Source: Nitrospira sp. (GTDB lineage Bacteria; Nitrospirota; Nitrospiria; Nitrospirales; Nitrospiraceae). Taken from it: a stretch of DNA of 35,300 nucleotides. A model generated the notes under the pieces. It made no database searches. It worked only from the letters and a program-made list of their open reading frames with translations, and had not been told where the DNA came from. The stretch spans positions 1 to 35,300 of the forward strand of contig JANDJJ010000014.1 in assembly GCA_024330945.1 (NCBI GenBank), in the 5' to 3' direction. Positions 22,994 through 25,609 of this stretch are shown piece after piece. Within the stretch, counting starts at the first letter, position 1, and each line of letters starts with the position of its first letter. The position numbers were made by a program, and so were the translations under genes.

Positions 22994-23058
22994 TCCCCCT
23001 GTACCATTCGAGCATTGAGACGTTCTTTTTCAAACTCACATTGACACAGGAGGACGTA

Positions 23059-23391
23059 ATGGACTCGTACTACCATGCGCACGATCTCGGCAAGTTTCCC
23101 GATATAGGCAAGGGCAACCCCACCCTCTGGAAGAAGTTTATGGAGTACTACACCGCCGTCTTCGCCGAGGGCGCACTCTCGGAGCGTGAAAAAGCCTTGA
23201 TCGCTCTGGCCGTGGCCCATACCGTCCAATGTCCTTACTGTATCGATGCCTATACGCACGCCTCACTTGAAAAGGGGTCGACCATCGAAGAAATGACGGA
23301 AGCCGTCCACGTGGCCTGCGCCATTCGCGGCGGCGCCTCGCTCATTCACGGTGTGCAAATGCGAAACGTGGCGGAGAAATTGTCGATGTAG
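23059..23391 (+). CDS. AhpD-like carboxymuconolactone decarboxylase family protein
   Basis: A 110-residue AhpD-fold protein. It has the redox motif CPYC (C58, C61) followed by IDAYTH, and the helical block LSEREKALIALAVAHTVQ before it and IRGGASLIHGVQMRN after. By eye it is closest to the 'arsenosugar biosynthesis-associated peroxidase-like' subfamily, whose genes usually sit beside the radical SAM enzyme ArsS. No ArsS gene is seen nearby; the radical SAM gene that follows is of another family and on the other strand. The ATG at 23059 is fixed by AGGAGG 5 nt upstream. Probable role: thiol-dependent peroxide or disulfide chemistry. Confidence 0.87.
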   Translation: MDSYYHAHDLGKFPDIGKGNPTLWKKFMEYYTAVFAEGALSEREKALIALAVAHTVQCPYCIDAYTHASLEKGSTIEEMTEAVHVACAIRGGASLIHGVQMRNVAEKLSM

Positions 23392-23472: not shown

Positions 23473-23586
23473 TTACCGACGCCTCTTTTGGAAGGCCTGG
23501 ATTTTTTGGCATCGTAGGTACTTGTGCCGCTCGTCCTGACTCTCACCCTCAATTCCGTCAATCTTCAGGAAATATTGATCTGCCAT
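23473..23586 (-). CDS. 37-residue ORF with Hcp-like N-terminus
   Basis: The ATG at 23586 has AGGAGG 5 nt upstream, an ideal ribosome site. The product begins MADQYFLKIDGIEGESQD, then ERHK, which is the N-terminal strand signature of Hcp, the type VI secretion tube protein. After the HK the likeness stops: the remaining 15 residues (YLRCQKIQAFQKRRR) are basic with one Cys and end in TAA. No other frame downstream continues an Hcp fold, and no T6SS gene is in the window. Two readings: a truncated hcp gene, or a small peptide that borrowed an Hcp-like leader. It lies 125 nt downstream of the RiPP-type radical SAM gene on the same strand, which makes the second worth testing. Confidence 0.55.
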   Translation of the reverse strand: MADQYFLKIDGIEGESQDERHKYLRCQKIQAFQKRRR

Positions 23587-23639
23587 GATATCCTCCTAAT
23601 CCAGACATAGCGCGATCGGCTCTTCTCCTTACTTTCAAT

Positions 23640-23711: not shown

Positions 23712-25568
23712 TTACAGATACGGGTTTTCCGGAATCGCCAGGGTGAAATACTTGCCGCGCTCCTCGTAGAGCACTCGATCGGCCGTGAGACCGTTGAGAA
23801 TCACGGCAAGGTCATCCTCTCGACAATCGACTCGGCCCGCGATGGCCGCGCAAATCTGGCTCGCGCTCTTCGCCGCCTCATTGCAGGCCTCGATCACCAA
23901 GGCCGCCGGTCCCTCATACCGCCTGCGTGTCGGCACCCGGGGATTCCTTCCGTCATAGACGGTCACGGAGGTCGGCGCTTTGGAGTAGTACAGAAAGGGT
24001 TTGTCGCCGGACTTGTGCATCCGCTGCCAACCCTCGATCGCCGAAACCAACTCCCGGTACAGATGAGGATCGATCGGCCAGTGGTCGAGTTCATACTCGA
24101 AATCGTAGGCGATCTTTTTCAGGTCCACGTGCCGCGCATCGTAGACATACTCGTAGGCCGTCCCCGGACCGGTGATGCGGATGCCATATTCGTGCGGTCT
24201 GGTGAAGTAAGGGCTGAAGCGCTGCAACCAGAATTTGCCGGTGGCTTCGGGCGGCTGAAGATGGAGCAAAGACGGAATCATGTCGAGCTGCCGTTGATAG
24301 TCTTGGTCGGTCTCGCCTGGAAACCCCAGCAGGATATTCCACAGCACCGTCACGCGATAATACAGACTCCACTTCAAGCACACGATGTTCTGCATTGGAG
24401 TGACGCCCTTGTCCATCGCGCGGAGCTGGTTGAGGCTGAGACTCTCCAACCCCGGTTGCATGCATTTCACGCCGCCGGCCGCCAAGGTTTTGATGTGCTG
24501 TTTTTGCAGATTGCTTTTGGTTTCGATGAAGATGTCGAAATCGCAATGGTCCGCCGCCAGCTTGCCGAAGACCTCTTCGACGTAGCCCAAATCAATAATG
24601 TTATCGACGAAGCGAAACCGCACCGCGTCATAGCGGTGCGACAGCATGGCCAGTTCCTCCAAAACCTGCGAAGGCGTCTTGGCACGGAATTTCATACTCT
24701 GGGCATTGAGCCCGCAAAACGTGCAGTGGTGTTTTTCGCCCCACCAACAGCCCCGGGAACCTTCATAGAGAAGAATGCGATCAAGCCCCTGCATCGTGTG
24801 ACCCAATTCCGTCAGCAGGCGATAGTAGTCGTCGTAATCCGGCGGACCGGCATTCGTAAAATCAGAAAAAAGTGACGGATTAGGAATCGAGATCACGTGC
24901 CCATTCTTTCGGTAGGCCACTCCAGCCGGGACCGCACTGCTTGGCGCCTCGCCGGAGAGCACGTGACGAACCAACGGCAAAAAGGTCGTCTCTCCCTCCC
25001 CCATCACGACATAATCGATGAAAGGAAAGGCTCTCAGATGTTCCAGCCCCATTTCGCCATCGACATTGGCTCCCCCAAAGACGATCGTGATGTGCGGATA
25101 GAGGTCCTTGATCAATTTGGCCATGGTGAGGCTGGCGACATGTTGATCGAACGTGGAGGTAAACCCGACCAGGCGATAGTCGCCCCACTCGATCGCGCGC
25201 AGCGCCCACGTCAAAAATTGAGGAGCGATCCGATTCCCCAGTTCCTCGAAATAGCCGATCGGTCTCCCACTCTCCCGCGCCGCCTGCTCGAAGATCGGTT
25301 TGAAGACAGTGGGATACTCCGCCCGCTTCGGGTTGTCCCGAAACAATATCGCTGAAAACAGCCACTCCCCGAACAGCGCCCGTTTTTCACAGATCAGCTC
25401 GTGCAACTCCACACCGATCAAGTGGGCGAACCGGACGTTCAAGTGATGACAGTCAACCGGAATACCGTGGGACCTAAGAAGGGCGGAAAGGGTGCCAAGT
25501 TGGATGGACGGATACTTGGCATAGCTGAACGGCATGTTGACGAGCGCGACACGGGCCTTGCCGCTCAT
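23712..25568 (-). CDS. RiPP maturation radical SAM protein (B12-binding type)
   Basis: A 618-residue radical SAM enzyme with an N-terminal cobalamin-binding-like domain (about 5-205: VALVNMPF, GFTSTFDQHVASLTMAKLI, FGGANVDGEMGLEHLRAF, VVMGEGETTF). The radical SAM core starts at EGSRGCWWGEKHHCTFCGLN; the cluster Cys residues are C274, C282 and C285, spaced Cx7Cx2C rather than Cx3Cx2C. Then IETKSNLQKQH, QPGLESLS and WNILLGFPGE. By recall this is the 'RiPP maturation radical SAM protein 1' family, thought to modify ribosomally made peptides, possibly by C-methylation. The C-terminal 120 residues resemble a winged helix. The ATG at 25568 follows GAGGGG by 7 nt. It lies 41 nt after the pterin dehydratase gene. 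The substrate is not known. Confidence 0.9.
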   Translation of the reverse strand: MSGKARVALVNMPFSYAKYPSIQLGTLSALLRSHGIPVDCHHLNVRFAHLIGVELHELICEKRALFGEWLFSAILFRDNPKRAEYPTVFKPIFEQAARESGRPIGYFEELGNRIAPQFLTWALRAIEWGDYRLVGFTSTFDQHVASLTMAKLIKDLYPHITIVFGGANVDGEMGLEHLRAFPFIDYVVMGEGETTFLPLVRHVLSGEAPSSAVPAGVAYRKNGHVISIPNPSLFSDFTNAGPPDYDDYYRLLTELGHTMQGLDRILLYEGSRGCWWGEKHHCTFCGLNAQSMKFRAKTPSQVLEELAMLSHRYDAVRFRFVDNIIDLGYVEEVFGKLAADHCDFDIFIETKSNLQKQHIKTLAAGGVKCMQPGLESLSLNQLRAMDKGVTPMQNIVCLKWSLYYRVTVLWNILLGFPGETDQDYQRQLDMIPSLLHLQPPEATGKFWLQRFSPYFTRPHEYGIRITGPGTAYEYVYDARHVDLKKIAYDFEYELDHWPIDPHLYRELVSAIEGWQRMHKSGDKPFLYYSKAPTSVTVYDGRNPRVPTRRRYEGPAALVIEACNEAAKSASQICAAIAGRVDCREDDLAVILNGLTADRVLYEERGKYFTLAIPENPYL

Positions 25569-25609
25569 GTGCAAACCCCTCTTCGTGATAACTAGTGGGC
25601 GGTCCGACG

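What the first reader, a model, noticed from the sequence alone, without database searches (positions are those of the whole stretch)
23473..23586. 37-residue protein starting like the T6SS tube protein Hcp, then switching to a basic tail
The first 22 residues follow the Hcp consensus (FLKIDGIEGESQD then HK), while the last 15 are unrelated, basic and hold one Cys. The ribosome site is perfect. No Hcp continuation is found in any frame. Either a deletion left a stump that still has its start signals, or an Hcp-like leader was recruited for a short peptide, as other peptide leaders were recruited from enzymes.
Basis: partly seen in the sequence, partly recalled or inferred. Interest (0 to 1): 0.65.

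Follow-up and report, generated by a model that had tools for sequence, protein, structure and literature searches.

The report
Deletion remnant of an hcp gene
The short 'Hcp-headed peptide' is what remains of an ordinary Hcp (type VI secretion tube-like) gene in a Nitrospira genome after an internal deletion of about 390 bases, so it is a broken gene and not a new peptide.

Summary
The ORF exists as described (minus strand, 23586..23473, 37 aa). Its first 22 residues are genuine Hcp: 95% identical to a full-length 167-aa Hcp at the same locus in a sister Nitrospira genome (G008/L018), between the same two neighbour genes. The claim that the tail is unrelated, with no Hcp continuation in any frame, is wrong. 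The last ~48 bases are the 3' end of the same hcp gene: frame +1 reads TYDAKKSRPSKRG, against AYDAKKARPSK in the intact relative, and they end at the homologous stop codon. The window has lost about 389-391 bases (intact codons ~23-152), plus one base in the tail that brings the last codons back into the old frame. The ribosome site is inherited from intact hcp. The junction occurs in no other genome of the genus (1 of 79), and the 37-aa form in no other of 295 phylum genomes sampled. A second close relative (G081) has hcp at the same place broken differently. No other Hcp and no TssB/TssC sheath gene was found in this genome. This is an ordinary pseudogene. An assembly error cannot be fully excluded without reads; a recruited peptide has no specific support.

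The parts
23521..23586 (-). 5' remnant of hcp: codons 1-22 (MADQYFLKIDGIEGESQDERHK)
   Evidence: 60/66 bases and 21/22 residues identical to intact hcp of L018/G008; five of the six base differences are synonymous
23518..23521 (-). Deletion junction, CACAAG|TA|CCTACG: 391 bases of the intact relative's hcp lie between the two aligned flanks and are represented by 2 bases here (389 missing if those 2 bases are diverged native sequence)
   Evidence: blastn flanks end at L018:4066 and resume at L018:4458; script; junction sequence unique to this genome in the genus
23473..23518 (-). 3' remnant of hcp, read mostly in a shifted frame; frame +1 encodes TYDAKKSRPSK; a one-base loss relative to G008 restores the old frame for the last codons (CGT CGG TAA)
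23589..23603 (-). Shine-Dalgarno region (AGGAGG) upstream of the ATG, inherited from intact hcp
   Evidence: same AGGAGG at the same distance in G008 and G027, variant AGGAGC in G081
23712..25574 (-). Upstream neighbour: B12-binding radical SAM protein, next to hcp in G008 and G081 as well
   Evidence: Pfam PF04055 and PF02310; synteny
23041..23391 (+). Downstream, convergent neighbour: carboxymuconolactone decarboxylase-family protein, next to hcp in G008 and G027; its DNA is also recognisable beside the degenerate hcp in G081
   Evidence: Pfam PF02627

Best explanation
This is a pseudogene of a stand-alone hcp gene. An intact gene of about 167 codons, still present at this locus in the sister genome G008, lost roughly 389-391 internal bases from the end of codon 22 to about codon 152. 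What is left is the upstream region with its ribosome site, the first 22 codons and the last ~48 bases. The join is out of frame, so a ribosome would read the old C-terminal DNA as a basic, Cys-containing nonsense tail. One further base lost near the end (relative to G008) restores the old frame just before the original stop codon. Any 37-aa product would lack nearly the whole Hcp domain and could not form a ring. Shown: the deletion, synteny, frame shift, inherited stop and ribosome site. Inferred: that the product is non-functional and that the event is recent, by illegitimate recombination.
For: Two-flank alignment to L018 with nothing missing except the middle of hcp, 93% identity on one side and 90% on the other. 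Intact 167-aa Hcp over the Pfam cut-off at the same locus in G008. Same flanking genes. Tail frame +1 reads as the Hcp C-terminus and shares its stop. Own genome has no full Hcp. Five of six differences in codons 1-22 are synonymous (simulation P 0.005), as expected if the gene was under selection until recently. G081 carries the same hcp broken by different lesions, with in-frame stops in both matched stretches. TssB and TssC are not found in G000, G008 and G081. Junction unique among 79 genus genomes.
Against: The start, ribosome site and an open 37-codon frame remain, so translation is possible. The net loss against G008 is 390 bases, a multiple of three, so the old stop is used again; that has about a one-in-three chance of arising by accident. 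The reads were not available, so the deletion itself rests on one draft assembly.
Confidence: 0.9

Rival explanations
1. Assembly error: the population carries intact hcp, and the draft assembly skipped its middle.
For: The genome is a draft in 205 contigs, and only one genome shows the junction.
Against: No repeat at the two breakpoints that could mislead an assembler: the longest exact word shared there, in the relative's sequence, is 4 bases, and none lines up with the junction. The missing middle is not found elsewhere in the assembly. A close relative shows independent decay of the same gene.
Confidence: 0.07
2. Recruited peptide: the Hcp head plus new basic tail is a translated, functional 37-aa peptide or leader.
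For: Open frame with a strong ribosome site; the 22 head codons differ from the relative almost only at synonymous sites.
Against: The tail is frame-shifted hcp. The form was not found in the other 78 genus genomes by junction search, or in a sample of 295 phylum genomes by protein search, where all other hits stop at residue 22 and lie in longer frames. Codon conservation is explained by the intact gene's history.
Confidence: 0.03

Closest known systems
Hcp (PF05638, T6SS_HCP), stand-alone Nitrospira type as in L018/G008
   Same: First 22 codons, ribosome site, stop codon, locus and neighbours
   Different: About 130 internal codons missing; tail read in another frame; cannot make the Hcp fold
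Bacterial pseudogene made by internal deletion
   Same: Remnants of both gene ends at the syntenic place, intact orthologue in a relative, no second copy
   Different: Nothing notable; the short reading frame happens to stay open to the original stop

Membership tests
Hcp (PF05638) | Match to the family model over its cut-off across the domain | tested here: not met
   Only positions 1-17 of 129, 16.8 bits against a cut-off of 23.5
Hcp (PF05638) | Homology of the surviving ends to a full-length Hcp gene | tested here: met
   Both flanks align to intact hcp in L018, which scores 120.5 bits with PF05638
Type VI secretion system | Sheath genes TssB (PF05591) and TssC (PF05943) in the genome | tested here: not met
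   None in G000; the control E. coli genome and four congeners are positive. The genome is a draft, about 95% complete
Pseudogene by deletion | Intact orthologue at the same locus with the same neighbours | tested here: met
Pseudogene by deletion | Surviving parts collinear with the orthologue, with an out-of-frame join | tested here: met
Functional short peptide / leader | Tail conserved in other genomes in its present frame | tested here: not met
   No match covering head and tail in any other genome
Functional short peptide / leader | Translation and a phenotype | not testable with these tools
   Needs ribosome profiling, proteomics or a knock-out

The most novel reading that the evidence does not exclude
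After the deletion, the inherited start signals still drive production of the 37-aa basic peptide, and it has gained a use in this one species.
Probability: 0.02. Interest if true: 0.4.

Novelty: already known. Interest (0 to 1): 0.06.

Why it matters
It matters little by itself: it is a textbook remnant of gene loss. It is a useful caution that a 'new tail' on a short ORF should be compared with the other frames of the parent gene's far end. It also points to stand-alone hcp genes in Nitrospira that persist in some species and decay in others without a recognisable type VI sheath.

Tried and rejected
Chance resemblance: rejected, since the DNA aligns on both sides of the gap to a syntenic intact gene. 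A second intact or displaced hcp in the same genome: not found. A T6SS cluster around the locus: the neighbours tested are housekeeping or metabolic families and no TssB/TssC was found in the genome. Same form elsewhere: none in the genus or phylum samples; the plasmid collection had no match. Deletion by recombination between direct repeats: no shared word over 4 bases at the breakpoints of the relative, although the true parental sequence is not known. Literature: none of the titles or abstract openings listed was about a Nitrospira hcp remnant; no paper was read in full.

Full report
Observation. The minus strand of 23473-23586 encodes MADQYFLKIDGIEGESQDERHKYLRCQKIQAFQKRRR and a stop, preceded by AGGAGG at a good distance. 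Residues 6-22 match the first 17 positions of the Hcp model PF05638 at 16.8 bits, under the 23.5-bit cut-off. Residues 1-22 match solved Hcp1 proteins (best E 0.0018). In same-genus genomes the head matches long open frames, best 95% over residues 1-22 in G008 and 91% in G027. So the head is real Hcp.

The intact gene. In G008 (its hcp contig is JANDJE010000051.1, titled Nitrospira sp.) the match is the start of a 167-aa Hcp that scores 120.5 bits with PF05638. It lies between the same B12-binding radical SAM gene and the same carboxymuconolactone decarboxylase-family gene as in the window.

The deletion. A blastn of the window strand against this locus gives two collinear pieces. The first is 1191/1280 identical and ends at ...GAGCAGCACAAG in the relative (L018:4066), codon 22 of hcp. 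The second is 1009/1122 identical and begins at CCTACGATGC (L018:4458), inside codon 153 of hcp. The 391 bases between are represented in the window by two bases, TA. G081 has GACCTGCGATGCC at this place, so at least the A is probably native and the true loss is then 389-390 bases. The tail contains one base fewer than in G008. Together the ORF is 390 bases shorter than hcp (114 against 504).

The tail. Read in frame +1, the tail is TYDAKKSRPSKRG; the intact relative reads AYDAKKARPSKAG. The one-base difference brings the last codons CGT CGG TAA back into the old frame, so the stop codon is the hcp stop. The basic, Cys-containing tail is a by-product of reading the C-terminal DNA out of frame.

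State of the gene family here. The genome has no other Hcp and no TssB or TssC. The third close genome, G081 (radical SAM neighbour 87% identical), holds hcp at the same locus with different lesions: matched stretches in two frames with in-frame stops, and an extra base near the start. Thus two of three close genomes have lost the gene independently. Of 21 congeners with a strong full-length-type match (E below 1e-40), only G087 and G011 have TssC, so most copies are stand-alone.

Selection. Codons 1-22 differ from G008 at six bases, five synonymous; random placement gives so few amino acid changes in 0.5% of trials. This fits an hcp that was under selection until recently. It does not show selection on the 37-aa product, because the comparison cannot separate the time before the deletion from the time after it.

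Is the 37-aa form found elsewhere? The junction, with up to 3 mismatches, occurs only in the window's genome among 79 of the genus. A protein search of 295 phylum genomes finds no match that extends past residue 22 outside this genome.

Remaining doubt. The evidence is one draft assembly in 205 contigs. There is no repeat at the breakpoints to mislead an assembler, and the middle of hcp is absent from the assembly, but reads were not available.

Verdict. An ordinary deletion pseudogene of a stand-alone hcp gene in Nitrospira.

Noticed in passing
L040 (G081:C40) about 1360-1855: The syntenic hcp in another Nitrospira genome is broken by frameshifts and in-frame stops, independent of the window's deletion.
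   Followed up: partly
Loci L020-L039 and L010 (21 congeners): Full-length-type Hcp genes occur in Nitrospira genomes of which 19 of 21 lack TssC; the seven of these 19 that were also checked for TssB lack it too. These look like stand-alone hcp genes whose role without a T6SS sheath is unclear.
   Followed up: partly
G009:C20 and G015:C20: TssB, TssC and a divergent Hcp lie within a few kb of each other, suggesting that a few Nitrospira carry a real T6SS cluster.
   Followed up: no
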